This document shows positions 6,684 to 34,114 of a DNA stretch of 64,000 bases, piece by piece. The stretch is from Elusimicrobiaceae bacterium (GTDB lineage Bacteria; Elusimicrobiota; Elusimicrobia; Elusimicrobiales; Elusimicrobiaceae). Below the pieces are notes generated by a model. That model was not told the origin of the DNA. It saw only the letters and a program-made list of their open reading frames with translations, and ran no database searches. Numbering within the stretch: the first letter of the stretch is position 1; every line of letters starts with the position of its first letter. The stretch spans positions 1 through 64,000 of the forward strand of contig JAFXVA010000006.1 of assembly GCA_017534965.1 (NCBI GenBank). The letters are read 5' to 3'. The translations under genes were made by a program, and so were the position numbers.

Positions 6684-8063
6684 TTACTTTGTTATGTCTA
6701 TATTACGCCAACGCCCGCTTAAAAAACGCCACATCATAATAAGCCCGGATATCCAGGCATAAAATACTATCCAACCCCAAGCAGCTTTTATTCCAAGCCC
6801 TAAAACATCTACTATAATATAACTGCCTATAACTAATAAAATAGAACAAAATATCATTGCTTTCATGTGAAATTTAGTATCTCCTGCCCCTCTGATAGCA
6901 TCACCAAAGCAAAGAAAAGTCAAATCTCCCCATACAAAAACACAAAGCATATAAAGTAGCGGCCTTGCCTGTTTTATAATTTCCGCCATTTGCGGCCCCG
7001 CATCCGAACCGGCAAAAAGACCGAACCAGAAATCACTGAAAAGTAAAAAGGTGGAAACTATAAAAATTAAATAAAATGTCCCTAATTTTAAAGCATTATA
7101 AGTGCTTTTTATGCCATTTTCCGGTTGTTTTTTACCGACATACTGGCCCATCAAAATCTGCCCTGAAATAGCAAGCCCTAACATTGGCATAAAAGAGATA
7201 GATTGTAAAGTTAAAACGATATTACTTGCCGCAAGAGATATTTTATCAATATTCCCGGTAAAGAAAGCAAAAACGGAAAAAGAAAAGATATCCATAAAAA
7301 AGCCAAAACCATTTGGTATGCCGTATTTGATAAGTCTAAAAAACGCTTTCTTATTAAAACCAAACAACTGACCGACTTTAAATTTATCATTTATTTTAGG
7401 GCTAAAAATTATAAGTAAAAATATTATCGTTACGCAAAAGCCACCGATAACCGTTGACCAAGCCGCCCCTTTTATACCCATTTCAGGTAATCCCCATTTA
7501 CCGAAAATAAGGCCATAATTTAAAACGATATTTACAAGATTGCCTATTAAATTAACAACCATTGTTATTGCTGTTTTGCCTTGCCCTGTAAAAAACCCTG
7601 CAAGAGCATTATTTATAACGGCAAAACCGCCAAATACACACAAAATAACAAAATATTGGCTCTCTAAAATTTTAACTGCGTTATCATGAGCCGAAGACAT
7701 TATTATATAAGATCCAATCGGTGTTAAAGCGGCAATAATTACTCCGGAAATTGCCCCCAAAATTACCCCTTGCCACAAAGCAATACTCAAACTTGCATAG
7801 CGTTTTTGTCCATAATAAGTGGCAACAAAGACGCTTGTATAACCGCAAGTGCCCATAAAAAAAGATATCAAAGCAAAAGACATTAAACCTGCCGGCAAAC
7901 AAGCCGCCAAAGCATCGGCCGAATACCACGCAAGAAACATCCTATCCACAAACTGCATTATGCTTTGAGAAGAAGTTGTTATAATTAAAGGCAAAGCAAT
8001 TTTTAAAAGTAATTTTATTGAACCTTGCTCATCTTTATTAGTAATTTTTAAAGGGTTTTTCAT
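6684..8063 (-). CDS. MATE-family multidrug/metabolite efflux transporter
   Basis: The 459-residue product has 12 predicted membrane segments in two similar halves, with the MATE hallmarks PLIITTSSQSIMQFVDRMFL near the N-terminus and GFFTGQGKTAITMVVNLIGN and FCFGDAIRGAGDTKFHM in the loops. MATE proteins export cationic compounds or metabolites using sodium or proton gradients. A sodium-coupled version would fit the sodium pump encoded at 28.8-32 kb, but the coupling ion cannot be read. It lies downstream of the cold-shock gene and its terminator, with no obvious promoter of its own between them. Confidence 0.93.
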   Translation of the reverse strand: MKNPLKITNKDEQGSIKLLLKIALPLIITTSSQSIMQFVDRMFLAWYSADALAACLPAGLMSFALISFFMGTCGYTSVFVATYYGQKRYASLSIALWQGVILGAISGVIIAALTPIGSYIIMSSAHDNAVKILESQYFVILCVFGGFAVINNALAGFFTGQGKTAITMVVNLIGNLVNIVLNYGLIFGKWGLPEMGIKGAAWSTVIGGFCVTIIFLLIIFSPKINDKFKVGQLFGFNKKAFFRLIKYGIPNGFGFFMDIFSFSVFAFFTGNIDKISLAASNIVLTLQSISFMPMLGLAISGQILMGQYVGKKQPENGIKSTYNALKLGTFYLIFIVSTFLLFSDFWFGLFAGSDAGPQMAEIIKQARPLLYMLCVFVWGDLTFLCFGDAIRGAGDTKFHMKAMIFCSILLVIGSYIIVDVLGLGIKAAWGWIVFYAWISGLIMMWRFLSGRWRNIDITK

Positions 8064-8080
8064 TTTTTATATTTAATCAC

Positions 8081-8117
8081 AAAAAAACCTGTGCGCAAAC
8101 GAATTTGCACACAGGTT
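8081..8117 (-). terminator. Rho-independent terminator of the cold-shock gene
   Basis: On the minus strand a 14-bp near-perfect stem (AACCTGTGTGCAAA with TTTGCGCACAGGTT, one G-U pair) with a 4-nt loop is followed by seven T. It sits 18 bases after the csp stop and before the MATE gene. Confidence 0.9.
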
Positions 8118-8134
8118 AATAGCATAAAAAGGTT

Positions 8135-8338
8135 TTATTTCTTGGTGACCTTTACTGCTTTAAGACCTTTTTCGGTTTCTACGACTTCGTAGCTTACTTC
8201 TTGACCTTCTGCTAAGGTTTTAAAGCCGTCGCCTTGAATGTCTTGATAGTGAACGAAAAGCTCTTTAGAGCCATCTTCGGGTGCGATAAAACCGAACCCT
8301 TTTTGATCATTAAACCATTTCACTTTTCCGTTTGCCAT
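8135..8338 (-). CDS. csp: Cold-shock domain protein (CspA family)
   Basis: This 67-residue single cold-shock domain (OB fold) has both RNA-binding motifs: RNP1 KGFGFI at residues 13-18 and RNP2 LFVHY at 27-31. Such proteins bind single-stranded RNA and DNA and melt mRNA structure. A near-consensus promoter (8411-8438) and a leader with two hairpins precede it, and a strong terminator follows, so it is a one-gene transcript. A GGAAG element lies just upstream of the start. Confidence 0.97.
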
Positions 8339-8366
8339 GATTATTTCTACTTCCTTTTATTAACTT

Positions 8367-8404
8367 AAGTCTTATTAAAAGACCTTAGGAACTTTTTAGT
8401 TCCT
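8367..8404 (-). promoter_or_regulatory. Hairpin leader of the csp mRNA
   Basis: The transcript start expected about 7 bases past the -10 places a perfect 7-bp hairpin (AGGAACT-AAAA-AGTTCCT, 8387-8404) at the very 5' end. A second hairpin (AGGTCTT/AAGACTT, 8367-8385) follows at once. Known cspA-type leaders refold with temperature; whether this one does is inference. Confidence 0.55.
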
Positions 8405-8410
8405 AAATAA

Positions 8411-8438
8411 ATTATATCATAAATTAAAGCCATGTCAA
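8411..8438 (-). promoter_or_regulatory. Sigma-70 promoter of csp
   Basis: On the minus strand a -35 TTGACA (8433-8438), a 16-base spacer and a -10 TATAAT (8411-8416) match consensus at every position. A plus-strand TATAAT at 8443-8448 may serve the divergent ftcD, but no good -35 is seen for it. Confidence 0.85.
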
Positions 8439-8467
8439 ATGCTATAATTTAAAACGGAGCTTTTATT

Positions 8468-9379
8468 ATGACCTTAATTGAATGCGTGCCAAATTTTTCT
8501 GAAGGCAGAGATTTAAAAAAAGTAAATGCTATTGCTGATTATATTAAAGCAAATGCAGATATTATGTTGCTTGGAAAAGAAAGCGGAGCCGATGTTAACA
8601 GAAGTGTTTTTACTTTTGCCGGAGAAAAAGAAGAAGTTTTTAAAGCGGCACTTGCTTGCGTTGAAATTGCCGCAAATTTAATTGATATGCGCGTGCAAAA
8701 AGGTAAGCATTTTAGAATCGGTGCTTTGGATGTTTGCCCATTTATTCCACTAAAGAATGCGACTATGCAAGATTGTATTATGCTAGCAAAAGCCGTTGCT
8801 GATTATGCAGGGAAAATAGGTATTCCAGCTTATTTATATGGTGAGGCGGCAACTATAAAAGAAAGGCAAAGTCTAGCTTTTATCCGCAAAGGTCAGTATG
8901 AAAATTTAGAAGAAAAATTAAAAACTCTTCCGCCTGATTTTGGCCCATCTGATTTTACCGAGCAAGTTAAAAAGAGCGGTGCTTTTTGTTTTGGTGCGCG
9001 TGATTTCCTGATTGCTTATAATATAAATTTAAAAACAAAAAATTTAGACATAGCAAAACAAATTGCCAAAACTTTGCGCGCAAAAATACCTTATATAAAA
9101 ACTACCGCTTGGTTTATTAAAGAATATGATTTATGCCAAGTTTCAATTAATATAGAAAATTATAAGGAGACCCCTATATTATTTGTTTTTAACGAGTGTA
9201 AAAAAATAGCGCAAAATTTTAATATAAAGGCTTTTTCAAGTGAGCTTATAGGGTTTGCCCCGCAAGAAGCCCTTTGCCAAAGCCGTGCTGATTTAGATAA
9301 AATAATAAAAGAGTTAGGATTTGATTATTTAAAACCTTTTAATAAAAAGGAACATATATTACCGGCGGAGTTATTATGA
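8468..9379 (+). CDS. ftcD: Glutamate formimidoyltransferase
   Basis: The 303-residue product matches the two formimidoyltransferase subdomains and lacks the cyclodeaminase domain of the fused enzyme. It moves the formimino group from formiminoglutamate to tetrahydrofolate in histidine breakdown. It starts with the family pattern LIECVPNFSEGRD. His81 in GKHFRIGALDVCPFIPL is where the catalytic histidine of the family lies (HPRMGATDVVPF in relatives). No histidine-degradation genes are beside it; it is translationally coupled (ATGA) to serC. With no hutHUI nearby, a role in one-carbon supply together with serine synthesis is possible but inferred. Confidence 0.93.
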   Translation: MTLIECVPNFSEGRDLKKVNAIADYIKANADIMLLGKESGADVNRSVFTFAGEKEEVFKAALACVEIAANLIDMRVQKGKHFRIGALDVCPFIPLKNATMQDCIMLAKAVADYAGKIGIPAYLYGEAATIKERQSLAFIRKGQYENLEEKLKTLPPDFGPSDFTEQVKKSGAFCFGARDFLIAYNINLKTKNLDIAKQIAKTLRAKIPYIKTTAWFIKEYDLCQVSINIENYKETPILFVFNECKKIAQNFNIKAFSSELIGFAPQEALCQSRADLDKIIKELGFDYLKPFNKKEHILPAELL

Positions 9380-10536
9380 AAATACCACAAAGAATTTTAC
9401 CTAGTAGCACTTTTACCTGCGGGCCAAGCCAGGCCTTAAAAAAGGTAGAAAACACCCCCCTTGTAAAAACTTTTTTTGAAAGATCTCACCGCAGTCCAAG
9501 CATTGCTCAAGAAGGTTTATACAGAGAAACAACTTTAAACATAAAAAAACTTTTTAATTTAAGTGATGATTACACAATTTTATTTTTTCCCGGCGGTGCA
9601 ACGGCTGCTATGGATACTGTCGTTTGGACTTTAACAAAAAAAAGTATCAGCGGGCTTATTTTTGGTTCATTTTCTAAACGCTGGACAAAAGACAGCAATT
9701 TTTTAGACGGCATTAAAAAAACTTTTGTTTCTTTTGATTATAAAAAAGAAAATTATAAAGAACTGGATTTTAAATCTTCTTTAATTTTGCTTACTTTAAA
9801 TGAAACTTCCCACGGCATTCGCCTGCCGGAAAAAATATTAAAAGATATTTACACCAAAAAAAGCAAAGATACTTTGGTGGCTTGGGATGTAACTTCCTGG
9901 GCGGGTATGAACCAAGTTAAACCTTATTTTGATATTATGCTTTTTAGCACGCAAAAAGGCTTTGGTGCAGGTGGCGGAACTTGCGTTTTAATTATGAATA
10001 AAAAAGCTATTAAACGCGCCGAAGAAATGCAAAAAACAAAAAAAATTCCTTTCTTTTTAAACTTAAATAACGCTTTACATTTTGCGCCTTTATACCAAAC
10101 TTTAAACACGCCTTCAACAATAAATATTTGGATGTTAAACGAAGGGGCAAAATATATGCTTAAACACGGCGGACTTAAAAAGATGGAAGACCTTACCCGC
10201 GCACACGCAAAAGTTTTGCTTGATTATGCCAAAAAATCAAATTGGCTAGCACCTATGATAGATAAGGCGGAGTTTCGCTCCCCCGAAACTTTAACTTTAA
10301 AAATTACTGATGATAAAATAAAGGATACACTTGTAAACAAAGCCCTTAAGCAAACAAAAAAGAGAAATCTTGCCGACGGAATAAAAAAGTTTTCAAGTAT
10401 AAGTGAAAATTCTTTAAGAATTGCCTGCTTTCCTTTTATTGACCCAAAAGGCACAAAAGAATTTATCAAACTTACAAAAACTTTAGATTATATCGCAAAA
10501 CATTTGGATAAAAATTTAAAAAATAAGGCCTTTTAA
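9376..10536 (+). CDS. serC: Phosphoserine aminotransferase (class V, PLP)
   Basis: The 386-residue product opens with TFTCGPSQAL, as in the SerC type found in actinobacteria and archaea. It has FFPGGATAAMD for the phosphate cup and the PLP lysine near residue 194 in FSTQKGFGAGGG. It converts 3-phosphohydroxypyruvate and glutamate to phosphoserine and 2-oxoglutarate. The start overlaps the ftcD stop as ATGA. Its last 21 bases overlap the end of the convergent rsmA. The specific call over other class V aminotransferases rests on the N-terminal motif and length. Confidence 0.88.
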   Translation: MKIPQRILPSSTFTCGPSQALKKVENTPLVKTFFERSHRSPSIAQEGLYRETTLNIKKLFNLSDDYTILFFPGGATAAMDTVVWTLTKKSISGLIFGSFSKRWTKDSNFLDGIKKTFVSFDYKKENYKELDFKSSLILLTLNETSHGIRLPEKILKDIYTKKSKDTLVAWDVTSWAGMNQVKPYFDIMLFSTQKGFGAGGGTCVLIMNKKAIKRAEEMQKTKKIPFFLNLNNALHFAPLYQTLNTPSTINIWMLNEGAKYMLKHGGLKKMEDLTRAHAKVLLDYAKKSNWLAPMIDKAEFRSPETLTLKITDDKIKDTLVNKALKQTKKRNLADGIKKFSSISENSLRIACFPFIDPKGTKEFIKLTKTLDYIAKHLDKNLKNKAF

Positions 10537-11304
10537 ATTTTGGGCTAAATCTGCATAATGTCTGGGAGAAAGTTCTTCTGCTCTAGCGGAAACTTTTATA
10601 TTGCTTTTGGCTAAAATCTTTATTAAATCATCTTTATTTTTTTTGTAAACTTCGCTAAGCGCGTTTAAGATGGTTTTTCTTCTGTAAATAAAGGCACATT
10701 TAACAAGTTCGTCAAAGTTTTTTTTGTGTTCTGCGGAAACAAAAAAAGTTTTATCTTTTGGTTTAATTAAAACGACTTCGCTATCAACTTTAGGCGGTGG
10801 ATTAAAACTGCCGGGACTAACGCGGCACACACTTTGAACATTTGCGCGCGCCTGAACCATAATAGATAAAGGACCATAAAGTTTAGTTTCCGGCGTAGCA
10901 AAAAACTTGCGCGCCTGTTCGCGCTGAAACATAAAAACAGCACAAGCAAAACCGGGCAAATCTAAAACTTTAAGCAAAATTTGCGCCGCATCAATATAAG
11001 GCAAATTGCTAAGAAAAGTTTTTTTACCTTCGGGGAAATCAGCTTCTGTTAAAGTTAAAAAATCTTTTTCAATTAATTTATAAGTTGCCCAAGCAGGTAA
11101 ATTTTGTTTTAAAAACTCACTCATTTTTGGGTCAATTTCAACTAAAGTAAAATCGTTTATACCTTTGTTTAAAAGATTAAAAGTTAATGCGCCTTTGCCG
11201 GGGCCGATTTCAATTAAAGAGCCTTCCTGATTATCAATAAGTGCATTGGTTATTTTATCAATAATGCCTTGATTAACTAAAAAATGTTGGCCGTATTTTT
11301 GCAT
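10516..11304 (-). CDS. rsmA: 16S rRNA dimethyladenosine transferase
   Basis: The 262-residue KsgA/RsmA protein dimethylates two adjacent adenosines in the 3' terminal helix of 16S rRNA. It begins QKYGQHFLVNQGIIDKI, has the SAM-binding IEIGPGKGALT motif near residues 31-42 and the catalytic NLPY motif near 100. It lies 8 bases downstream of the TPR gene at 11312-13072 and may be cotranscribed with it. Confidence 0.96.
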   Translation of the reverse strand: MQKYGQHFLVNQGIIDKITNALIDNQEGSLIEIGPGKGALTFNLLNKGINDFTLVEIDPKMSEFLKQNLPAWATYKLIEKDFLTLTEADFPEGKKTFLSNLPYIDAAQILLKVLDLPGFACAVFMFQREQARKFFATPETKLYGPLSIMVQARANVQSVCRVSPGSFNPPPKVDSEVVLIKPKDKTFFVSAEHKKNFDELVKCAFIYRRKTILNALSEVYKKNKDDLIKILAKSNIKVSARAEELSPRHYADLAQNLKGLIF

Positions 11305-11311
11305 AAAAAAC

Positions 11312-13072
11312 TTATTCCTCCGCCGTTAGAATTTCAAGATTACTTTGTGCAATTTTATTATTTTTATTTATCTCTAAAACTTGCTGATAAACATTTTTTG
11401 CTTCTTCTTCCCGTCCTAAAACGACATAAGAAGTGCCTATCCCCAAAAAACAAATTTCTTTTAATTTATTATTATCTTTTACTAATTTATTTGCTTTTGT
11501 AAAACTATTTAAGGCCTGCTTGCCTTGACCGAGAGTTAAATACATAAAACCGGAAAGAATATAATTTTGAATTGTCGGTTCTTTTAAAGTTTTTTCTTCA
11601 ATATCATTTTGCACTTCTTCAATATATTTAAGCCAAGTTTTACCCACGACCCAAAGCCCCATATCATTACCCACATTATAAGGGTTATAAGTTGCTTTTG
11701 CCCCGATAGAATTTTGCGCCTGGCCGTAAGCGGTGTTTTGCGCGCTTAAACTTGGGGCATCTTTTTTTAAACTAGAGGCCTGCAAAAACATTTTGATATT
11801 ATTTTCTTTTGAGCCCTCTTTTAAAACATTATTTAAGCCGTCAAAAAGTTTATCAAGTTGTTCTTTGCGGCCTTCTTCAGTTGCGGGAGCAAGCGTAAAA
11901 GAACGGCTAAAAGTGCTTGCCAAAGTTTGTTCGTATTTTTCGTCAAACTTAGAAGGTTTTAAAACTTCGCTACTGGTTTTTTCCACAATAGGATTAAAGT
12001 TTTTAGGTGTAAGTTCCGTTTGCACTTCAATATCAATTTCTTCTTCCGGAGAGATTTTAGATAAACGTTTTTTAAAGCCGGCAAGTTGGCTATCTAGGTC
12101 GTTTTGGTTTTTATTATTTTGCGCATTGTTTTTTGTGCTATTTGAAGATTTACCGCCGTAAGAAATTGATAAAGCAAGACCCTCGTTTGAAGTTGGTGCA
12201 ATTAAAAAAGCACGCTCAATAATATCTGTGGCTTCTTCAAATTTATTTTGTTTTAAAAGCAAATTAACTAAGCGAAGTCTTGCAATACTATCGCCCGGTT
12301 TTAAGGAAAGAGCTTTAGAGTAATAACCTTTTGCGCGGGCACTTTCGCCAAGTTTTTCTGAAAGAACGGCTAAAGCCAAAATTGCTTCTTCATAATAAGG
12401 ATAAATTTTTAAAGATTTTTTAAAAGATTCTTTTGCCAGCTCATCACGGCCTAAAAATTCATATAAGGAACCTAACTGATAAACATATAAAGGATGTCTT
12501 GGTTCAAGTTCAACCGCACGGCGAAAGTGAAATAAAGAGTTTTCATAATCATTTAAAGCCCCGTAAGTAGAGCCAAGATTCATATTTACATCGGCGCGGT
12601 TTGGCTCTTTTTTATAGGCCGCTTGGAAATGTTCTAATGCGGGGTTAACTTCGCCTTTCCAAGCATAAGCAATACCCATTAATTGATGGGCTTGGGCATT
12701 TTCGGGGTCAATATCAAGGGCGGCGCGATACTCGGCCATGGCCTCTTCCAAGCGGCCTTGCCAATAAAGAGAAATACCCAAAAATATATGAGGATAGGGT
12801 TTGCTTGGGTCTTTGATAGTTGCCTTGGCAAAAGTTTGCTCGGCTGCTTTATAATTGTGTTTTGCAAGGTCATAAAAGCCCTGTTTTAAATTGAGGGTAG
12901 ATTGCTCGTGCATAAGATTTTCCCAATAAGTTGGGTAATAATTATTTTCAAGATTAGCTTTTTGTGCATTTATGCCAAGCCCGCTACCGCCAAGAAATTT
13001 TGGCAAAGCGGCTGATGTCAAAAGCGAGCAATTAAGTAAAATTAAAGAAAGTAAAAAAGCAAATTTCCTCAT
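11312..13072 (-). CDS. Secreted TPR-repeat protein
   Basis: The 586-residue product has an N-terminal signal peptide (residues 1-21, LLNCSLLTSAA; a lipoprotein is possible at the Cys). Seven or so classical TPR units follow over residues 55-300 (for example PHIFLGISLYWQGRLEEAMA and ADVNMNLGSTYGALNDYENS), then an Asn/Lys/Glu-rich linker and two more TPR units near 500-580. It probably acts as a periplasmic or outer-membrane scaffold. It lies directly downstream of the six-gene operon, separated by a terminator, and could serve that machine, but this is inference from position. Specific function unknown. Confidence 0.88.
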   Translation of the reverse strand: MRKFAFLLSLILLNCSLLTSAALPKFLGGSGLGINAQKANLENNYYPTYWENLMHEQSTLNLKQGFYDLAKHNYKAAEQTFAKATIKDPSKPYPHIFLGISLYWQGRLEEAMAEYRAALDIDPENAQAHQLMGIAYAWKGEVNPALEHFQAAYKKEPNRADVNMNLGSTYGALNDYENSLFHFRRAVELEPRHPLYVYQLGSLYEFLGRDELAKESFKKSLKIYPYYEEAILALAVLSEKLGESARAKGYYSKALSLKPGDSIARLRLVNLLLKQNKFEEATDIIERAFLIAPTSNEGLALSISYGGKSSNSTKNNAQNNKNQNDLDSQLAGFKKRLSKISPEEEIDIEVQTELTPKNFNPIVEKTSSEVLKPSKFDEKYEQTLASTFSRSFTLAPATEEGRKEQLDKLFDGLNNVLKEGSKENNIKMFLQASSLKKDAPSLSAQNTAYGQAQNSIGAKATYNPYNVGNDMGLWVVGKTWLKYIEEVQNDIEEKTLKEPTIQNYILSGFMYLTLGQGKQALNSFTKANKLVKDNNKLKEICFLGIGTSYVVLGREEEAKNVYQQVLEINKNNKIAQSNLEILTAEE

Positions 13073-13104
13073 ATATAAATTATATTAAATATGCTAGTTT
13101 TAAG

Positions 13105-13140
13105 ACAAAAAACACCCCGCTCTAAAAAGAACGGGGTGTT
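13105..13140 (-). terminator. Rho-independent terminator of the six-gene operon
   Basis: On the minus strand AACACCCCG pairs with CGGGGTGTT around a 12-nt loop and runs straight into a T-rich tail. It follows the stop of the 1023-residue gene by 19 bases and closes the operon. Confidence 0.93.
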
Positions 13141-13159
13141 AATTTCAAACTGCTTTTTA

Positions 13160-16100
13160 TTAGCGTCTAACAGTTCCTTTGATTATGACCTTTCTATCTT
13201 TAGATTCTTGTAATCTATAGTTTGCCTCATCAGCAGCAGGCCATGCTTTTTTGCCTGCAGGAAGAGGAGGTCTTTGGAAGACAGCATCTCTATCACCAAC
13301 ACCATAGATTGTAACTGATTCTGCAGGGTTAGAAGGATTGGAGATAGTGTTTCTTCTCTTAGGCCAGCTTCTGTATTTAACCCATCTGCTATCAGGGGCA
13401 ATACCTTGATAATTGCCTAGGCCGTCGCTTGTCGGGGTAACCTGAAGGTCAACACCATGGCTGGCCCATTCTTTTTGGACCTGTCTTGACACTTCCATAG
13501 CCCTATCAAAAGATAATCTCTTATTATTATTTTTGACTTGACCTTTATCATCGGTTACCGTGGTTTTGGAAGCGTGACCTTCTATGATAGGATTATCGCA
13601 ATCGTGCATAACTTCATATATCTTTGCAAGCGGTAATTGTTTCTTCAGTTCATATGAAGCGTTCCAGAAGAATTCACCTATCAACTGAACTTCACAAGGA
13701 CCAATCACGATATCTGTATATTCCGGTTGCGCAGGTTCCTCGCTTGGATCAGGGTTGCAATACGGACAGAGCGGAGTACCGGGTTTAACAGGATTAATAT
13801 CGCCTTCATTTCTGGTTAACGGACTATCCGGATCAACAGGAGCTTCTGAGTCAATACCTTCCGTTTCAAAGATACCCATACCCAAGGCCTTAGCCTTTGC
13901 AGCACAAATAGGCGTGCAAGGATAAGAAGCCTGACCGCTTGTAAATGTCTGCGAAGTGCGGATATGATAAGTTCTGCCATCTATACCCACAAATGACGTG
14001 CTGGGATATATTTGTTTGCCAATATAACATTTACCTGCGCCGTCATCTTCAGGGTTAGGGTTGCAGTAAGGACAAAGCGGATCGCCCGGTTTAACAGGTA
14101 AAATATCATCCGGATTTTCAGTTAGAGGTTCATCTCCCCAACGATCATAGGTGGTATCATCTGCATTTCTGATAGCTTGATAAATAACCTTTGCTTTATC
14201 TGCACATATAGACCAGCATGGATTTTCAGCATTGCAAGGTGTTATCTCCTCTTCACTAATGCGGATGTTGTAATGTAAACGATGGCTTTCTAATGTAATA
14301 CTTGGATAACAATGTTTGACATTATATTTATCTTCTATATAGCATTGACCATCGCCAGCCGGTTTATTCTTAGGTTCTGAAGGATTGCAGAACGGGCAAT
14401 TCTCGACATAAATACCATGAGCTTGCAATTCTTCTTTTGTTAAGGGGGCAATATTGGGTATGGGCTCTGCGCTGCCTGTTTCATTTACAATACTGGCACC
14501 GCCGTTCTTATACTGACAGACAGGCTCGCATTGTAAAACTTCATAAGCAACATTTTGATCCTCTATAGGATCTCTGCTTGCTCTAAACAAATAACCGCGA
14601 TATTCTACTGCTTTATAGATTTTGCCATCAGCGGCATCTCTACAATAATTCTTGTTTATATCAAGGCAGTCATCTGTTTCGCCACAGCCCCAAATATATT
14701 TGCAAATACCGGTTGCATAACCTTTATTTGGCAAAGTGTTCATTACGGATTGAAGATCTGTATCATAGACAGGAGTATTTCTGTTTTTGATATCACTGGT
14801 CAAATCATCCGTAGTGATCCAGAGAACATAGCCTTTGCCTGAGCGGGCAAGAACTCTACTACCTTTTGCATCATCTTTGATAGTAGAAGATAAACCTACT
14901 TTAAATTCTCCAATAAAGGCTGTTTCCGTATATTCGTTGCCATTTTCATCTTTTTTAGTTGTAGATCGTTTTTGGCCTTCCGTTTCACGGCTAAAATCTA
15001 TAACCTCTTTGATAAGGAAGCCGGATCTTTCGGGAATGGTGGTTTGGTCGCCATTTTTAAAATAACCCGTGCCGGCTGTTTCACCGCCTTGGACTTCTTC
15101 CATCACTACTGCAATGGTGCGCGGTCCGGGGTTTTTAATGGTAGCGCTGATTGCGTGCCATCCGCCGGCATTTGGAATAAATGCTGTAGTTTTATCGCAA
15201 ACTATACCGCTATACGGAGAGCTATTCATAGAAGTTGTGCCGTCTTTAGTATTGATTCTTAAAGGCGAAATTGTGCCATTACCAAAGCGGTTAGCCGGAA
15301 CACCGCAAGTAGCAACAGTATTAAATCTGCCCATGGAATTAGAAGAATCTCTCCATTTTCCATAAGTCTTTAAGATTTCCTGAACGCGTTTTTCGCTAAG
15401 ACATTCACCGCGGTCTATAGCGTTTTGGATTTTTTGTTCGGCTTCTCTTAAACCTCTGTAATAATCGCCGGATTCCCAATAGATTTCTTCTTCGGAGTTA
15501 TAATTACCTTTTTTGTTCTTATAATCTTCAAGATCTCTATCAAAGGTTGGGTCATCGTTACCTTCTGGGAAGAAGCCCGCGCCTGTTGCGCCAACTCTAT
15601 AAACAACGACTTTAGTCATACCTTTTTGGTAAGGTATATCATTTATTCCCGGGATAGCATGGTTAATGGCTACGGCACATTCGTCATTGCCTTTTTTACC
15701 CATTACATAATATCCCATTTTTCTATATTGTTTAACTCTTTCTTTGTTATTCCTTTTTACGCTGATGTTAACTTGCATAGGATCGCCATACATATTAACA
15801 CAAACAGCAGAGCGTCTGACTTGGGTCATATTTTTTAATTCGCTAAGTTTTAAACCCAAACAGCGTAAGCGGACATCAAGAGCACTCTTGCGAGATGCTT
15901 GAGTAGGATAAAATTCTGCATTGGCAGGGCATACCATTCTTAAAGCATCTATGGCATGGTTGGAGGTTTCTTTATCTTTTCCTGTGCCAGTTGTTGTAGA
16001 GGCGAAATCTGTTAAATCACCTGCACAAATTTCTTCGCCAAAACTTGTTCTGCAACAAATATCAACACCACCACCGGGGGAACCTAAAAATTTGCCAACG

Positions 16101-16231
16101 GCAAAATCAGGAGAGCCGGCAATTAAACAAGAAGCAAGACCGGCAGTAAGTTTAATTAAACTATCGGAAACCATCTTTTCCCAGTTATAATGCCAAAGTT
16201 CCCATCTCATTTGGGAGCGTTTTTGCATCAT
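13160..16231 (-). CDS. Large cysteine-rich envelope protein with C-terminal OmpA-like domain (operon gene 6)
   Basis: The 1023-residue product is not recognised as a whole. Residues 1-45 carry a short basic start and a weak hydrophobic stretch (LIKLTAGLASCLIAG) that may anchor or export it. Residues ~60-600 hold many paired cysteines (VDICCRTSFGEEICAG, YIWGCGETDDC). Three CPFCNP/CPYCNP motifs near residues 613, 722 and 824 mark modules of about 105 residues, each with a CYI...YPS segment. The last ~180 residues read like an OmpA/MotB peptidoglycan-binding domain (NPIIEGHAS..., LSFDRAMEVSRQVQKEWASHGVD). The start codon lies 18 bases after gene 5. The role is inferred as the cell-wall-facing end of an envelope complex. 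Confidence 0.8.
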   Translation of the reverse strand: MMQKRSQMRWELWHYNWEKMVSDSLIKLTAGLASCLIAGSPDFAVGKFLGSPGGGVDICCRTSFGEEICAGDLTDFASTTTGTGKDKETSNHAIDALRMVCPANAEFYPTQASRKSALDVRLRCLGLKLSELKNMTQVRRSAVCVNMYGDPMQVNISVKRNNKERVKQYRKMGYYVMGKKGNDECAVAINHAIPGINDIPYQKGMTKVVVYRVGATGAGFFPEGNDDPTFDRDLEDYKNKKGNYNSEEEIYWESGDYYRGLREAEQKIQNAIDRGECLSEKRVQEILKTYGKWRDSSNSMGRFNTVATCGVPANRFGNGTISPLRINTKDGTTSMNSSPYSGIVCDKTTAFIPNAGGWHAISATIKNPGPRTIAVVMEEVQGGETAGTGYFKNGDQTTIPERSGFLIKEVIDFSRETEGQKRSTTKKDENGNEYTETAFIGEFKVGLSSTIKDDAKGSRVLARSGKGYVLWITTDDLTSDIKNRNTPVYDTDLQSVMNTLPNKGYATGICKYIWGCGETDDCLDINKNYCRDAADGKIYKAVEYRGYLFRASRDPIEDQNVAYEVLQCEPVCQYKNGGASIVNETGSAEPIPNIAPLTKEELQAHGIYVENCPFCNPSEPKNKPAGDGQCYIEDKYNVKHCYPSITLESHRLHYNIRISEEEITPCNAENPCWSICADKAKVIYQAIRNADDTTYDRWGDEPLTENPDDILPVKPGDPLCPYCNPNPEDDGAGKCYIGKQIYPSTSFVGIDGRTYHIRTSQTFTSGQASYPCTPICAAKAKALGMGIFETEGIDSEAPVDPDSPLTRNEGDINPVKPGTPLCPYCNPDPSEEPAQPEYTDIVIGPCEVQLIGEFFWNASYELKKQLPLAKIYEVMHDCDNPIIEGHASKTTVTDDKGQVKNNNKRLSFDRAMEVSRQVQKEWASHGVDLQVTPTSDGLGNYQGIAPDSRWVKYRSWPKRRNTISNPSNPAESVTIYGVGDRDAVFQRPPLPAGKKAWPAADEANYRLQESKDRKVIIKGTVRR

Positions 16232-16248
16232 ATCCCACCACCAGGGTT

Positions 16249-17163
16249 TTAAGGGGCTATGATTCCAATTATTAGCGACATTACCGCCTGCACCAGGTCT
16301 ATTTGGGCCGGCACCGGGCCACCGCCCCCTCTGGTATCACCCAAAGGTTTGCCGTCAACATCTGCAAGTTGGGCATCCATAAGGGCTTGTTTTGCACCGG
16401 GGGTGTTCATTGCGCCAATAGAGCGGGCTGCTTCTGCATATAAAGCATCATTGCCGGTTAAATTGCGGCCTCTGCCTGCAGCTTGAAGAGGTTGCAAAGC
16501 AACCGGTCTGACACCGGGGCCTTGAACTTTAGCAGCTGCATCTCTTGCGCGGCTGCCAGAAGCCATAGTATGCCCAACACCGCTACCGGCACCCGGGGAA
16601 ACCATTGCGCCGGATCTTAAAGAACCGATGGCTGTGGGTATGCGGTTTACGGAATTGCGGACAGATCTTTTAACCGTTCTGCCATATCTTGAAGTAGCAG
16701 GGGAAGAAGAGTATTCTTCGCTTCCGTAACTAGAACGGGAAGAATAATCTGATTCAGAAGATTCGCCTTCGCCTGAACCTGCACCATAAGTATCAATAGT
16801 ATCTTTGGCGGAGGAGTCTTCTTCTCCATGACGGATAATTAAATCAAGAGGATTGCGGAAGCTAGATAAAGCAATTTCCCCTTCGGCTGATTCGGGTTTG
16901 TTAAATTCTTCTAAATATCCATCACTACCATCGCCCCAGACAACAGAAGGGGTATCAATATCTCCCGCTTCTCTGCTGAGGAAGGGCAACAATAGCAAAG
17001 CTAGTGCTGCCACGATTATAAAGGGCAAGTCCCTTTGCGCACGCTCAAAAAGGGTGCGTTTTGCTTTAACTTCCCCGCCCACACGGGAGGGAATACGCTT
17101 AGATAAAGGTAAAGTTTTGCTTTTCTTTAACTTGTCACTAAACGTAAAGCTATCCTTTTTCAT
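16249..17163 (-). CDS. Single-anchor, Ser/Gly-rich envelope protein (operon gene 5)
   Basis: The 304-residue product has a 46-residue basic cytoplasmic tail, one membrane segment near 47-64 (PFIIVAALALLLLPFL), and an extracytoplasmic region rich in Ser, Gly and Tyr (YSSRSSYGSEEYSSS). The motif GSLRSGAMVSPGAGSGVG near 180-200 matches GSLTRGGMVSVGGGSSGV of gene 1, and a hydrophobic C-terminus follows (VMSLIIGIIAP). A strong AAGGAGG site precedes the ATG. Its base composition looks more GC-rich than the neighbours (by eye). No known family recognised. Probably part of the same complex as genes 1-4 and 6. Confidence 0.82.
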   Translation of the reverse strand: MKKDSFTFSDKLKKSKTLPLSKRIPSRVGGEVKAKRTLFERAQRDLPFIIVAALALLLLPFLSREAGDIDTPSVVWGDGSDGYLEEFNKPESAEGEIALSSFRNPLDLIIRHGEEDSSAKDTIDTYGAGSGEGESSESDYSSRSSYGSEEYSSSPATSRYGRTVKRSVRNSVNRIPTAIGSLRSGAMVSPGAGSGVGHTMASGSRARDAAAKVQGPGVRPVALQPLQAAGRGRNLTGNDALYAEAARSIGAMNTPGAKQALMDAQLADVDGKPLGDTRGGGGPVPAQIDLVQAVMSLIIGIIAP

Positions 17164-17350
17164 AACAATCCTCCTTTTAGTTTACGGACATAAACCACAT
17201 AAAATGCTCTATGCCCTCTATCTTATATTTTTACTGCTTTTACTTCTTTTTACTTCTTGGGCTTTTATCTAAGTCTTAAGCCCCTTGCTATGAAATCTGT
17301 TTTTACTTCCTTTTTACTAAAGTTTACCATTTATTTCTTCTATTTCTTTT
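17164..17350 (-). other. Intra-operon gap with A-rich direct repeats and a hairpin
   Basis: This is the only long gap in the operon, 187 bases between genes 4 and 5, with no gene visible. On the minus strand it carries five AGTAAAA-type words (three as GAAGTAAAA) and a short hairpin (GGGCTT/AAGCCC, 17259-17283). It could be an RNA-processing or stability element or an internal regulatory site. No convincing promoter was found. Confidence 0.5.
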
Positions 17351-19024
17351 TTATTTTTTGGGTAAACTTGTTATATCTATAATTTTGCCAAAGGCAAAAC
17401 CTTCTTCTATTTTTTCATCAAAATATTCTTCATAACATTGAGTTTCTGTTCTGCAAACTTTATCTGCATTAAAATCACTATCAGTTAACTCAATTTCTTC
17501 ATCAGCGGATATGGCTGCTGCCTCTTCTGCATCCTCTTGGGAGTATCCTTGATTTTTATAATATCTCACATAATGTTTATATCTTCTCTCCCATTTTCTG
17601 ATTTTTCTCTTGCCACTTGCAGTAAATCTAACCTTTCCTGTTTTATCAAAAACACTTACATTTCTGCATTTTATATATAATTGCCCCGGCTTATCGACAC
17701 TGGCAAGTATAAGACTTTGCACCATTTCGCTACAATTCTTAACAGGTTCTTCAAATGTTATACCGCACTGATTAGCAAATTGTTTCCTTCTGTTTTTTAT
17801 ATTATTACAAAAACTTTCTATACTAGAAAGACTATCGTTCCAAGCATCTCTTTCTATTTTAACATGTCTATTTTTATTTTTGCCATAACAAAATCCAGGA
17901 GTTTTAGGCCTATTATCAGAAAGAGATTTCATTGCTTCTTTAACTTCTTCAATAGCATTATAATAACTTGCAATTTCTTGTTTATAAGTTTCTTTCATTT
18001 GTTGGCAAGCTTGAACACTTTGAGCACTTGAATTAAGTGAAAGCATAGGGTTTGTTGAGCCCCCCATAATAACGGCATCTTCATCTGTTACAAGACTTTG
18101 ATCTTGTGGGGAACCGCCATCAAAAGCCGCAACTGCAATATCGGAAGCGGCAGTGGGTAATTTTGCCCCTGTGGCATATCTGCTAAAGAAATAGGAATTA
18201 CCTAAATCTTTAAATAAGCCGTAAACAGGACGGCCGATTTTTGTATCGGTTCTATTTAATTCCGGATTAGATACACCAAATACACTCGTGCCGGATAAGG
18301 CACGGGCAGCTTGCATTACTTTTTCATAAGTGCTATCTTCTTTGCGTGCTAAAGAAGCAATATTTCCGCCACCTACAATATTGGAAATATTGGAATCTTT
18401 TAAGTTAAGAATACTTGCAATATCTTGTAAATCATCTTTTTTAAGAGGTTTGCCAAAAGCTTCTGCCTGTAAACCTGCCGCAGCGGCAAGGGCTTCCATA
18501 GCACCACTACGAGCCGCTTGGGAAGAACCGGAAAGTCTGGCAGGATCAAAACCTTTGGCAAGCATATTTTTATCAAAGACAATTTCCCTATTAACATTAT
18601 TTTTATTAAAAGGTTTTATTTTGCCGCCTAATCTTTTTTCCATTTCCATAGCTTCTTTGGCATTTTTTTCATAGGCCTCGGCAAGTCTATCTGAAGTTAA
18701 AGTGGCAAAAGGCGAAAGCCCCCCACCATAATTACCCGAGCCATTATAACTAAGATTGCTGGCACGTAATTCTTGTATTTTATTATCTTTTGTGCCGATA
18801 GCATAAGAAGCAAAATCTGCCATAGTTAAATTGCGTGTTGCATCAACATTTAGGCCGATTGCCTGGGCAATATAACTAAACCCGGGTATATTAGAGGTAG
18901 GCACAACAACTGAGACCACACCCAAAGTAGCAACTAGGCCAAGCGAAGCCAAGGCCACTTTTTTACCAAATGTTAAGCGGTTCTTTTTAGCTGCTTGATT
19001 AACTACTACTTTTGCCTTTTTCAT
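17351..19024 (-). CDS. Single-anchor envelope protein (operon gene 4)
   Basis: The 557-residue product is not recognised. It has a Lys-rich N-terminus, a membrane segment near 22-42 (VALASLGLVATLGVVSVVV), and an Ala/Gly-rich extracytoplasmic middle (SSQAARSGAMEALAAAAGLQ, TAASDIAVAAFDGGS). A C-terminal third follows with eight or more cysteines in short-spaced pairs (VQACQQM, GFCYG, ANQCG, VKNCSEM, YIKCRN, VCRTETQCYEE), suggesting disulfides. GAGG lies 9-12 bases before the ATG. It shares the anchor-plus-long-exterior plan of genes 1, 3 and 5, with short resemblances such as AAFDG to gene 2. Confidence 0.82.
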   Translation of the reverse strand: MKKAKVVVNQAAKKNRLTFGKKVALASLGLVATLGVVSVVVPTSNIPGFSYIAQAIGLNVDATRNLTMADFASYAIGTKDNKIQELRASNLSYNGSGNYGGGLSPFATLTSDRLAEAYEKNAKEAMEMEKRLGGKIKPFNKNNVNREIVFDKNMLAKGFDPARLSGSSQAARSGAMEALAAAAGLQAEAFGKPLKKDDLQDIASILNLKDSNISNIVGGGNIASLARKEDSTYEKVMQAARALSGTSVFGVSNPELNRTDTKIGRPVYGLFKDLGNSYFFSRYATGAKLPTAASDIAVAAFDGGSPQDQSLVTDEDAVIMGGSTNPMLSLNSSAQSVQACQQMKETYKQEIASYYNAIEEVKEAMKSLSDNRPKTPGFCYGKNKNRHVKIERDAWNDSLSSIESFCNNIKNRRKQFANQCGITFEEPVKNCSEMVQSLILASVDKPGQLYIKCRNVSVFDKTGKVRFTASGKRKIRKWERRYKHYVRYYKNQGYSQEDAEEAAAISADEEIELTDSDFNADKVCRTETQCYEEYFDEKIEEGFAFGKIIDITSLPKK

Positions 19025-19049
19025 AATTTTATTCCTCTTTTAAAAACGG

Positions 19050-19646
19050 CTAAAATTGCTGCTTTTGAAAAGTGCTTTCCCCAAGTTTGCTTGTTTTTAA
19101 AGTGCCGATTTGCGTTTTTTGCTGAGTAGGTTGTTTTGTATTCTTAGGTGTAAAAGTTTTTGAGGCACCCACCCCGCCTTTTGTTGAAATATTTGTTGCT
19201 TTTTGTAATTCCTGCTGTTCTTGTAAACGCTCAAGTCTTTCCTGTTCAAGTAAAGCTTTTTCTTTAGCGGCTTCAAGAGCTTCAAGACGTTCTGCCTCTT
19301 TTCTTGCTTTTTCTTTTTCGGCAATAATCTGTCTGTATTCCGCAAGTTGTCTTTCGTAATCTCTTATTTCAGACTCTTTGCTAGTAGTTCCTTTATTAGA
19401 AACAATATTCTTAAAGCCCGGATTTATACCGCCACCCTGATTATAAAGACTTTCATTATAAGTATCTGCTTTGTCATTTTGGCCTCTTTGTGCGTTCATA
19501 TAAGCGGCTATTGCCATTTTACAACGAACGCATTCTGACATTTTTTTAGGGGCTAAAACTTTCATAAATAATGTCAAGAAGGTTGTATATATAAAAGCCG
19601 ATATTATAACTGAAAGTAAAAATCTATTTCTCCTATCCCTTGTCAT
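19050..19646 (-). CDS. Small membrane-anchored coiled-coil protein (operon gene 3)
   Basis: The 198-residue product is not recognised. The ATG at 19646 is preferred over an in-frame GTG at 19652 because an AAGGAG site sits five bases before the ATG and would overlap the GTG. A membrane segment covers roughly 9-32, followed by a CxxC pair (ECVRCK). A charged coiled coil runs about 90-148 (KARKEAERLEALEAAKEKAL) and a Gln/Thr/Lys-rich tail follows. The plan (short inside, one helix, long coiled coil outside) is like periplasmic linker or FtsL/TolA-type stalk proteins, without sequence proof. Confidence 0.8.
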   Translation of the reverse strand: MTRDRRNRFLLSVIISAFIYTTFLTLFMKVLAPKKMSECVRCKMAIAAYMNAQRGQNDKADTYNESLYNQGGGINPGFKNIVSNKGTTSKESEIRDYERQLAEYRQIIAEKEKARKEAERLEALEAAKEKALLEQERLERLQEQQELQKATNISTKGGVGASKTFTPKNTKQPTQQKTQIGTLKTSKLGESTFQKQQF

Positions 19647-19655
19647 AACCACTCC

Positions 19656-21068
19656 TTACATTTTGCTGGGTTTTCTCATTCTAATCATTTCTTCAACAAA
19701 TCCCATAGCTACTGCTGCAGCTGCTGTCGGAATGAAAGCTGTTGCCATAAGAGCATTAAGCATACCAAATAAACCCCAAGCACCCCACATTTCACCTTTA
19801 CCGGGGGTTATACCTCCGTTTGCTTGCGATAGAGCATCAATCTGGTTAATAGAATTTGCATAACTATCTGCACCACCCCATAAAACACCTGAAATTGCTG
19901 CTGCACAAGCTACACAAATAGCACCGGCAATTAAATAGCACCAAGGACCAGCTGCTTTTGCTTCAATAACTGCAAATGCTGCAATAAAACCGGCCATTGC
20001 TACACCAAAAGCAGCCCAATATCTTGTATTTGCTTTATCTACAAGTTCATTATATTTATCTGTCTGTTGTTTAATATAAGCAGCAGAATCTTTAATCTTG
20101 CTTGTATCTAAACCGGATAAATCATCTAAAGCATTAAGGGCGGCTTGTTGTAAATTTTCCCCTTGCAAATTAACGGCTTCTGCTTCTTGGCTGCCATCAA
20201 AAGCGGCTGCAGCATCTGCTGCACCTTTTGCAGCATCGCTAACAACAGCGTTTTTACCGGACATAGAATATTTGCTTGCGCGGCCTAAATCACCAATACT
20301 TTCATGATTTCCGCCTAAAGCGCTGCGCCCTCTTGCTTGGCCTTCTGCAGAAGTAGAGTTCATCCCCATAGCGCCAATACTGCCGGATGCTCCTTTTAAA
20401 TTATTGGCATTAGCTTTGGCTAAAGCAACTTTGGAGGAATCTAAAGTGCCGGAAGTGCCTCTATTATTGCCAATACCGCCATAAACCATTGAGGTTGAGC
20501 CGGTTTCAATACCTTTAATACCGCTACCATCTGCAATTTTGCTTGTTTTAAGGGTTGCTCTTGCTTTATCGCCAAGTTCTTTACCTTTTGCAATTTTGGC
20601 ATCTCTTTGTGCTTGAGCGGCTGCTACATCTTCTGCGGAAACACCGACTCTTACTTTACCGGAAGTCCCCATGCCTTCAATTTCGCCGGCACCATAGCCG
20701 GTAGAATTATCACTAACCCCTGCAGTGCCTGCTTGGGCATTATAATCTACACCGGTATTTTGTGCGCCGGTTCTACCTCTTAAAGCAAGGCGATCTGTGC
20801 CTGTGATAGTAGGTCTGGAGCCATCTCTGCTGCTTTGTGCATAATTGCGGGCTGCAATAATATCATCAACATCTGCACCTGAATAAGTCCCTTCATAAGA
20901 AGAATATCCTTTTTCAATAGCATTAGAAGCAAAACCTTTTTCAGAATCACCACTGGAACTAAAATTGTTCATAAGACCGATGCCAACCATTAAGGTTGCC
21001 ACACCGATAGCGCCACCAACAATTACTTGTTTGGAAATTGCACCAATATTATTTAGCATCTTTTTCAT
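19656..21068 (-). CDS. Gly/Ala/Ser-rich multi-anchor membrane protein (operon gene 2)
   Basis: The product is 470 residues from the ATG at 21068, which is chosen because GGAGG lies eight bases upstream; an in-frame ATG at 21083 would overlap gene 1. One membrane segment lies near the N-terminus (QVIVGGAIGVATLMVGIGLM). About 290 residues follow that are rich in Gly, Ala and Ser with few charged clusters (GIGNNRGTSGTLDSSKVA). Two or three C-terminal membrane segments come next (WAAFGVAMAGFIAAFAVIEA, CYLIAGAICVACAAAISGVL, LMATAFIPTAAAAVAM). SIGAM in the middle recurs in gene 5. No family recognised; possibly the membrane core of the complex. Confidence 0.82.
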   Translation of the reverse strand: MKKMLNNIGAISKQVIVGGAIGVATLMVGIGLMNNFSSSGDSEKGFASNAIEKGYSSYEGTYSGADVDDIIAARNYAQSSRDGSRPTITGTDRLALRGRTGAQNTGVDYNAQAGTAGVSDNSTGYGAGEIEGMGTSGKVRVGVSAEDVAAAQAQRDAKIAKGKELGDKARATLKTSKIADGSGIKGIETGSTSMVYGGIGNNRGTSGTLDSSKVALAKANANNLKGASGSIGAMGMNSTSAEGQARGRSALGGNHESIGDLGRASKYSMSGKNAVVSDAAKGAADAAAAFDGSQEAEAVNLQGENLQQAALNALDDLSGLDTSKIKDSAAYIKQQTDKYNELVDKANTRYWAAFGVAMAGFIAAFAVIEAKAAGPWCYLIAGAICVACAAAISGVLWGGADSYANSINQIDALSQANGGITPGKGEMWGAWGLFGMLNALMATAFIPTAAAAVAMGFVEEMIRMRKPSKM

Positions 21069-21069
21069 T

Positions 21070-22275
21070 TTATTTTCCTCCACTAATATTAGAAAATTTC
21101 TTCATAGCATCTTTTACAATTGGATTTTTACTATTTTGGGCTTTCTTTATAGCATCAGATGCCTTTGCTTTCTGTTTTTCACTTACTTTTTTATCGCCTG
21201 TTCTACCGCTTCTTTCCCCTGTTGCATAGGAAGTTGCAATATCAACAGCAGCATCAATAAGTTTTTCCATTATCTTTTCAAGAAACTGCTCTCTTCTGCA
21301 TTCCATACGAATAGCTCTATTTCTTGATTTGCAAGGGTCTGCTTCGTCTTCCTTTTTATCTTTTTCCTTTTCTGCTTCGTTCTTTAAATCTTGTAAATCT
21401 TTATCACTTACGGCCTTTTTAAAGTCTTCAGCATTAAATTTATCTGCAAATTCATCCATCCCATCAGCAAGGCCTTCATCTTCTGCTTCAAGATTATTAT
21501 TTGTAAAAGCATCCGAAGCGGCCTGGGCTGCAATATCTGCATTTTGGGCACCTGCACCCCTTTGGCTTTCCTCTATTGCGCGGTTAAGGGTAGCAACTCT
21601 GCCTTTTATATCATTTTTAGCAACTAATTGTTGCGTTCCGCCGATACCGCCTGTAGAGCCATTTGTTTTTGAACCTTGCTGTCTTGATTTATCTTGACTG
21701 GTCCAAATAGAAGTGCTTACCCCGCTTGAACCACCACCTACTGATACCATACCGCCTCTTGTTAAACTGCCCGGGGTTGTATTATGTCTTTGAGTATAAA
21801 CCGGAGATCTTGAAACACCTCTTGCTTGTCTTCTTTCTCTTACTTTGCGGGCTTGTTTATATTCTTCATCAGGAGCAGCAGGTGTGCCTTCTGTTTTATC
21901 AATCTCTTGTCTTTCTTCTTTATCTTTTTTATCAAAGAGCCCCCCCGCTATTTTTGTTTGCGGGATATCACTATATTTGCCCATTTCAAGTAAAACTTTT
22001 TCCGCTTCATCATCAACGGCTAAATCGGCAAGGTCAAAAGCAACACTTTTATAAGAATTGCCGGAGGCTTTTTCCTCCCCGCCGGATAAAACAGGAACTA
22101 AAATAGTTATTAAAAATATTGCAGAAACACAGCAGGAAACTATTGTATAAAGTTTCTTTTCGTCCTTTTGTTGTTTGCTTTTTCCATTTTTAACTATAAG
22201 GCCGAAACTCTTTTCTTGTTTTGTTTTGGCACTATTCATAAAGAAGCCAAAACCTTTTGGTTTTTGTTCTGTCAT
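21070..22275 (-). CDS. Single-anchor envelope protein (operon gene 1)
   Basis: The 401-residue product is not recognised. A Lys-rich cytoplasmic tail of ~42 residues precedes a membrane segment near 43-64 (TIVSCCVSAIFLITILVPVL). Next come an acidic stretch, a basic stretch (KQARKVRERRQARG), the Gly motif GSLTRGGMVSVGGGSSGV near 165-185 shared with gene 5, and an Ala/Asp/Glu-rich part. A helical C-terminus with two Cys follows (DPCKSRN, MECRREQ). AAGGGG lies nine bases before the ATG. It is first in the operon, directly after the structured leader. Its stop is followed by gene 2 after one base. Confidence 0.82.
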   Translation of the reverse strand: MTEQKPKGFGFFMNSAKTKQEKSFGLIVKNGKSKQQKDEKKLYTIVSCCVSAIFLITILVPVLSGGEEKASGNSYKSVAFDLADLAVDDEAEKVLLEMGKYSDIPQTKIAGGLFDKKDKEERQEIDKTEGTPAAPDEEYKQARKVRERRQARGVSRSPVYTQRHNTTPGSLTRGGMVSVGGGSSGVSTSIWTSQDKSRQQGSKTNGSTGGIGGTQQLVAKNDIKGRVATLNRAIEESQRGAGAQNADIAAQAASDAFTNNNLEAEDEGLADGMDEFADKFNAEDFKKAVSDKDLQDLKNEAEKEKDKKEDEADPCKSRNRAIRMECRREQFLEKIMEKLIDAAVDIATSYATGERSGRTGDKKVSEKQKAKASDAIKKAQNSKNPIVKDAMKKFSNISGGK

Positions 22276-22414: not shown

Positions 22415-22443
22415 AGTATACACCCTATTTTTAAATTTGTCAA
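22415..22443 (-). promoter_or_regulatory. Near-consensus sigma-70 promoter of the six-gene operon
   Basis: On the minus strand a perfect -35 TTGACA (22438-22443), an optimal 17-base spacer and a -10 TATACT (22415-22420) are present. It is among the strongest promoters in the window, which suggests high expression of the operon. Confidence 0.88.
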
Positions 22444-33736: not shown

Positions 33737-34081
33737 GGGGGCGACTAGTTTTGACAGATAACTCTGAGGCTTGCTTGCAGGTAGCGGTTGGCCAGGCCGC
33801 TTAAAATAGGGCTACAATAATAGTTGGCAACAACTACAACAACAACGTTTGGGCTACAGCCTAAACCCGAAGCTTTTGTATTGACGGTGTGCAAAAGCAA
33901 TCGGTCAAGAATTCCGTCTGCTGCAAAAAAGGTTAGTTTGGCCTAATTTTGCTTAAGACAAAGCAAACAAGTAAAGCAGCAGCAGCTCCGGGCAGGCGGC
34001 TTTACTATAATACCGGGGCTAAACCTGTAGTAAGTAAGTTATAAGGTTGTTTGGACGCGGGTGCGAATCCCGCCGCCTCCA
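33737..34081 (+). ncRNA. ssrA: tmRNA (transfer-messenger RNA)
   Basis: The ends form the tRNA-like acceptor (GGGGGCG with CGCCTCC) and a T arm GCGGG-TGCGAAT-CCCGC; the T loop reads TGCGAAT instead of the usual TTCGAAT. The tag frame, placed by the ATAGTT just before it as in other tmRNAs, starts at GGC 33826 and ends with TAA at 33862-33864. With the alanine carried by tmRNA the tag is (A)GNNYNNNVWATA. The usual -LAA or -ALAA end is missing. CCA is not encoded. It rescues stalled ribosomes and marks products for degradation. Confidence 0.93.
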
Positions 34082-34114
34082 CTTTAAATTTTAGAAGATA
34101 GGGAGCTTTATTTT

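What the first reader, a model, noticed from the sequence alone, without database searches (positions are those of the whole stretch)
13160..22275. Six-gene operon of unrecognised envelope proteins, possibly a new surface machine
One strong promoter drives six genes. Five products have a basic inside tail, an N-terminal membrane helix and long Gly/Ala/Ser-rich, cysteine-paired or coiled-coil outside regions. The sixth is a 1023-residue Cys-rich protein ending in an OmpA-like peptidoglycan-binding domain. The set spans inner membrane to cell wall in design but holds no ATPase, secretin, usher or other known core. A secreted TPR protein follows. I could not assign it to any secretion, pilus or conjugation system.
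Basis: partly seen in the sequence, partly recalled or inferred. Interest (0 to 1): 0.87.

Follow-up and report, generated by a model that had tools for sequence, protein, structure and literature searches.

The report
Hypervariable envelope gene set beside Tad pili
This gut bacterium carries a five-gene set of unfamiliar, fast-changing envelope proteins that in its relatives sits at the end of the genes for a known surface filament (the Tad pilus), so it is probably a lineage-specific add-on to that filament machine, not a separate new one.

Summary
The operon is real: one good promoter, six ORFs on the minus strand, a strong terminator. Two corrections change its meaning. First, the last two ORFs (304 and 1023 aa) are one gene of about 1330 residues broken by a 2-bp frameshift near 16.32 kb. 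The gene is one open frame in nearly every relative where it is fully assembled. There are thus five genes: A, B, C, D and EF. Second, the claim of "no ATPase or secretin" holds only locally. The genome has a full Tad (type IVc) pilus system on two other contigs. In at least 33 relatives (my count), A-EF lies 21-24 kb downstream of the Tad gene rcpC on the same strand, at the end of the Tad locus. No protein matches a Pfam or NCBIfam family above cut-off or a solved structure convincingly. Module members occur across two families of one Elusimicrobiota order. A-D and the C-terminal part of EF diverge far faster than the Tad core. EF carries three Cys-rich tandem repeats inside a sharply bounded variable stretch, then an OmpA-like domain. 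None of the five has a Tad prepilin site. Best reading: an inner-membrane-anchored, trans-envelope accessory assembly of the Tad machine that displays a variable specificity domain. The function is inferred, not shown.

The parts
22415..22443 (-). promoter TTGACA-17-TATACT of the operon (11 of 12 matches)
   Evidence: (pattern only), sequence
21070..22275 (-). gene A, 401 aa: basic tail, one membrane helix (40-67), Gly/Ser-rich linker; duplicated in part of the genus
   Evidence: homologous to the N-terminal part of EF
19656..21083 (-). gene B, 475 aa: N-terminal helix, Gly/Ala/Ser-rich region, three further predicted helices near the C-terminus; two copies (B, B') in many relatives
19050..19652 (-). 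gene C, 200 aa: one membrane helix and a coiled-coil-like region; poorly conserved
17351..19024 (-). gene D, 557 aa: one membrane helix, low-confidence linker, helical C-terminal domain with four invariant Cys (340, 406, 420, 431)
16249..17163 (-). 5' part of gene EF (ORF of 304 aa): conserved cytosolic tail with FTFSDK, membrane helix, linker; the last residues are out of frame
16315..16327 (-). position of the 2-bp frameshift that splits EF
13160..16231 (-). 3' part of gene EF (ORF of 1023 aa): 33 Cys, hypervariable
13751..14716 (-). three tandem Cys-rich repeats of about 105 aa (F residues 506-617, 618-725, 726-827); most of this stretch is the variable cassette
13232..13699 (-). OmpA-like domain (F about 845-1000), weak by Pfam, supported by profile comparison
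13111..13140 (-). intrinsic terminator, 13-pair stem then T-run
11312..13072 (-). TPR protein (586 aa, signal-peptide-like start), gene-order partner of the module in nearly all relatives; NCBIfam type_IV_pilW 127.5 bits, below its 154 cut-off

Best explanation
A-B-C-D-EF is a lineage-specific accessory module of the Tad (type IVc) pilus machine of one Elusimicrobiota order. Proposed mechanism: the five proteins insert in the inner membrane with short basic tails inside. Their helices and shared post-membrane modules pack A, B, D and EF into one assembly next to the Tad platform. Long Gly/Ala/Ser linkers cross the periplasm. The disulfide-rich C-terminal domain of EF, with swappable Cys repeats and in some genera an OmpA-like wall-binding end, forms the distal, exposed specificity element that meets other cells, host glycans or phages. 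Shown: the operon, one EF gene, gene-order link to the Tad locus, profile similarity among A, B, D and EF, extreme and mosaic divergence, absence of prepilin sites. Inferred: physical assembly, exposure and function.
For: In relatives the module directly follows HK, NarL-type regulator, a TadG-like and a TadE-like gene at the end of a Tad locus. RcpC lies 21-24 kb upstream of EF on the same strand in at least 33 genomes (counted by hand), and G071, a deep genus, has the same arrangement. The window's genome has TadE, RcpC, secretin, TadZ-TadA fusion, TadB, TadC, two Flp-like prepilins and one prepilin peptidase. 134 of 139 genomes with D also have RcpC, while RcpC is wider, in 209 of 235. Where the block has moved, its parts are still kept. 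Post-membrane parts of A-B, A-D, A-EF and B-D exceed all 80 column-shuffled decoys. Between G000 and G087, Tad core proteins are 76-96% identical and EF-N 78%, but A-D 43-58% and EF-C 38%. Module dN/dS is 0.24-0.30 (EF-N 0.18) against 0.07-0.12 for neighbours. DNA identity falls to 47-71% at 13.8-14.7 kb beside stretches of 93-100%. All Cys counted in full-length EF lie after the membrane and linker region, apart from one or two in three genomes.
Against: In the window's own genome and in G074, G087, G075, G073, G085 and G068 the module is not next to the Tad locus, and in family f2 it lies elsewhere in every case read. Tad is in 89% of the class, so co-occurrence alone is weak. G076, 99% complete, has Tad but neither D nor EF. 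Fast evolution can also mean relaxed constraint on linkers. No structure of A-EF could be predicted with confidence. Surface exposure and physical contact with Tad parts are untested.
Confidence: 0.5

Rival explanations
1. Alignment scaffold: A-EF replaces the PilMNOP-type bridge that Tad systems lack, linking the inner-membrane platform to the secretin and the wall. The variable parts are spacers, not ligands.
For: Single-pass anchors, long linkers, OmpA-like end and a TPR partner that scores with PilW. EF-N is conserved like the Tad core.
Against: EF-C and A-D are hypervariable with a cassette-like boundary, and the OmpA-like domain was not recognised in the EF of g2 or f2 (reading). A spacer would not need either.
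Confidence: 0.2
2. Independent envelope machine of the order that merely sits beside Tad in family f1.
For: In f2 the A-B-B'-D-EF block is away from Tad. Gene content is coherent on its own, and some genera split it from Tad.
Against: Adjacency at a constant 21-24 kb in many genomes and in deep G071; no energy source or export pore of its own.
Confidence: 0.2
3. Tad-delivered contact weapon like the Myxococcus Kil system, with EF-C as the variable effector or prey-recognition part.
For: Kil uses a Tad pilus with variable disulfide-rich tip proteins (PMC12075869). EF-C is variable and Cys-rich.
Against: No recognised toxin domain above cut-off, no immunity-like gene beside the variable part, and A-EF lack prepilin sites.
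Confidence: 0.07
4. Decaying or non-functional genes: the frameshift in EF marks a pseudogene.
For: The frameshift in this assembly.
Against: dN/dS is 0.18-0.30 across the module, and nearly every other fully assembled EF is one open frame. The frameshift may be a consensus error in a draft MAG.
Confidence: 0.03

Closest known systems
Tad / type IVc pilus locus (TadZ, TadA, TadB, TadC, RcpA, RcpC, TadE, Flp)
   Same: In relatives the module is the 3' end of this locus; the full core is in the same genome.
   Different: A-EF belong to no described Tad family. Denise et al. 2019 (PMC6668835) report new Tad systems in Elusimicrobia; the passages I found there do not mention such a module.
KilLMN / TadEFG minor-pilin tip complexes (PMC12075869)
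   Same: Tad-linked, variable and disulfide-rich distal domains on a conserved membrane-helix base.
   Different: KilLMN are prepilins with a cleavage site; A-EF have none. The TadE-like and TadG-like genes upstream of A in relatives are the likelier tip proteins.
OmpA/Pal family peptidoglycan-binding domain (PF00691)
   Same: The C-terminus of EF in genus g1 resembles it.
   Different: Below the Pfam cut-off; not recognised in EF of g2 or f2; the anchor is an inner-membrane helix, not a lipid or beta-barrel.
PilMNOP alignment complex of type IVa pili (from general knowledge)
   Same: Inner-membrane anchored periplasmic proteins joining platform and secretin, by analogy only.
   Different: No sequence similarity found; gene number and architecture differ.

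Membership tests
Tad / type IVc pilus system (whole genome) | TadA-type ATPase, TadB and TadC platform, secretin, RcpC, TadE | tested here: met
   Pfam over cut-off for all six on contig C45 of the same genome
Tad / type IVc pilus system (whole genome) | Flp-type prepilin and a prepilin peptidase | tested here: met
   Two short ORFs with G-xxxx-E and a hydrophobic helix before tadE; Peptidase_A24 on C6. Pfam Flp_Fap itself gave no hit in this genome.
Tad minor pilins / tip complex (TadEFG, KilLMN) | class III prepilin cleavage site ahead of the first helix in A, B, C, D, EF | tested here: not met
   0 of 20 EF, 0 of 21 D, 0 of 23 B, 0 of 13 C, 1 of 19 A (an over-extended start); the control TadE-like set scores 12 of 12
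Tad minor pilins / tip complex (TadEFG, KilLMN) | pilin fold | tested here: inconclusive
   Models of D and F have low confidence, pLDDT 53 and 44
OmpA-like peptidoglycan-binding protein | PF00691 match over the curated cut-off | tested here: not met
   15.3 bits against 27.2; 3 of 20 EF proteins match at E up to 0.5
OmpA-like peptidoglycan-binding protein | profile similarity to OmpA domains | tested here: met
   31.6 and 36.5 against decoy maxima of 18.9 and 13.8; segments were chosen by an OmpA-like motif, so partly circular
Type II/III/IV/VI/IX secretion, conjugation, usher pili | a core component encoded inside the operon | tested here: not met
   No Pfam or NCBIfam hit above cut-off for A-F

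The most novel reading that the evidence does not exclude
A previously undescribed class of non-pilin trans-envelope display complex, confined to Elusimicrobiota. Its paralogous membrane-anchored subunits share an assembly module and hold a cassette-swapped, Cys-repeat recognition protein in the Tad machine, giving these gut bacteria a changeable surface specificity.
Probability: 0.3. Interest if true: 0.8.

Novelty: new variant of a known kind. Interest (0 to 1): 0.6.

Why it matters
Tad pili are widespread adhesion and killing machines, and the known way to diversify them is by minor-pilin tips. Here a whole order of bacteria, many of its records from rumen and other animal guts, carries a different set of large, rapidly changing proteins tied to its Tad locus. 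If the link is right, it adds a second route to Tad specialisation and names the likely specificity genes of bacteria whose cell-cell interactions are almost unstudied. It also warns that 'no ATPase, no secretin' inside one window can hide a full machine on other contigs of a draft genome.

Tried and rejected
Pfam, NCBIfam, PHROGs and PADLOC: no usable hit for A-F. PDB by sequence for F, D and B: nothing convincing; one weak hit of B to a designed membrane-protein binder (E 0.004) was rejected as a composition match. AlphaFold of D: pLDDT 53, only the C-terminal helical part ordered, no PDB fold match below E 1. AlphaFold of F: pLDDT 44, so no fold search was run. A shared domain between C and the others was rejected for A-C, B-C and D-C after decoys; EF-C exceeded its decoys over only 11 columns and was not pursued. 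Silent donor cassettes for the EF repeats elsewhere in the genome: none found. An RNA element in 16.9-22.7 kb: none in Rfam. Literature on an Elusimicrobiota Tad accessory module: nothing found in the open-access library. The 8xMP and GspM weak hits were rejected as far below cut-off.

Full report
Observation. The six ORFs lie where stated on the minus strand. A consensus-like promoter (TTGACA-17-TATACT, 22443-22415) precedes them and a 13-pair terminator (13140-13111) follows. The TPR gene at 13072-11312 is after the terminator, so it is a neighbouring unit, but it keeps its place next to the module in almost all relatives. I call the genes A, B, C, D, E and F in order of transcription.

E and F are one gene. 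In the closest relative read (G074, 83% identical over F) a single ORF of 1331 aa covers both; the other EF genes read are single ORFs of 1159-1434 aa. Alignment shows two extra bases in the window, near 16.32 kb, which push the frame into a short false tail and a stop. A profile of the EF N-terminus matches the window in two pieces that break between 16327 and 16315, while nearly every other fully assembled hit is one open frame. Whether the shift is in the cell or only in the draft assembly cannot be told here. The 1023-residue protein is therefore the distal part of an inner-membrane anchored protein, not a free OmpA protein.

The context that changes the reading. In G083, G061, G055, G014 and others the order is histidine kinase, NarL-type regulator, a TadG-like gene, a TadE-like gene, then A (A'), B, C (B'), D, EF, TPR, ksgA. 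Upstream lies TadE, RcpC/CpaB, secretin, a TadZ-TadA fusion, TadB, TadC, a TPR protein, HAMP and kinase genes. By my hand count of the match lists, RcpC is 21-24 kb upstream of EF on the same strand in at least 33 genomes. These genomes are related, so this is shared synteny, not 33 independent events. G071, a deeper genus, has the same layout. The window's genome carries its Tad core on contigs C45 and C18, confirmed by Pfam, with two Flp-like prepilins and a prepilin peptidase. The A-EF block has moved away from it in this genome and in G087.

Distribution. Of 235 genomes of the class, 85 match the EF N-terminal profile, 139 match the D profile and 209 match RcpC. D covers nearly all of family f1, most of f2 in the same order, and six genomes of f14. 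In f2 the order A-B-B'-D-EF is kept, but away from Tad. In G075, G073 and G085 the A-B-C-D block, EF and Tad sit at three separate places, yet all are kept. 134 of 139 D-positive genomes have RcpC (hand tally). In named genomes EF was found only in records labelled Elusimicrobia or uncultured bacterium, many from rumen and other guts.

Protein anatomy. A, C, D and EF have one predicted helix after a basic tail; B has one plus three near its C-terminus. A and EF-N align over about 200 columns. With membrane helices removed and 80 column-shuffled decoys, A-B scores 39.6 (decoy maximum 15.9), A-D 34.6 (19.3), A-EF 34.0 (25.2) and B-D 21.6 (17.5). Composition bias of Gly-rich sequence may inflate these, so I read them as good support, not proof, of a shared module. 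No member has a class III prepilin site, while the TadE-like controls do in 12 of 12. EF-C contains three tandem Cys-rich repeats in the window's strain and an OmpA-like end.

Evolution. Between G000 and G087 the Tad core is 76-96% identical, EF-N 78%, A-D 43-58%, EF-C 38%. Module dN/dS is 0.24-0.30 (EF-N 0.18) against 0.07-0.12 for neighbours, so the genes are constrained but loosely. DNA identity to G074 drops to 47-71% at 13.8-14.7 kb between stretches of 93-100%, and to 57-84% over A-D. The sharp edges fit recombinational exchange of cassettes. No donor copy was found in the genome.

Interpretation. The supported facts are a conserved, order-specific gene set, linked by gene order to Tad loci in family f1, whose outer parts change fast. 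The mechanism proposed, a trans-envelope display or scaffold complex of the Tad machine, is inference. The closest analogy is the adaptable Tad tip of Myxococcus (PMC12075869), but A-EF fail the prepilin test and so are not members of that family. The main rivals are an alignment scaffold and an independent machine.

Noticed in passing
L076 (G000:C45) 8824-13230 and 7835-8806, minus strand: Just upstream of the Tad genes, a 1468-aa secreted protein with FlgD Ig-like and CHU_C-like (type IX signal-like) domains and a UPF0164 (PorV-like) barrel protein; both recur upstream of TadE in relatives.
   Followed up: no
window 17164-17350: A 187-bp gap between D and E, of similar length in relatives; no strong promoter or Rfam match was found there.
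   Followed up: partly
window 13751-14716 against L034 (G074): Sharp mosaic divergence: 47-71% DNA identity inside, 93-100% on either side, suggesting recombination in the repeat region.
   Followed up: partly
L077 (G000:C18) 987-2593: The TadE-like and TadG-like genes in this genome are followed by a POT-type transporter in place of the A-EF block, marking the site the block left or never joined.
   Followed up: no
window 33737-34082: A tmRNA gene with tag peptide GNNYNNNVWATA.
   Followed up: no
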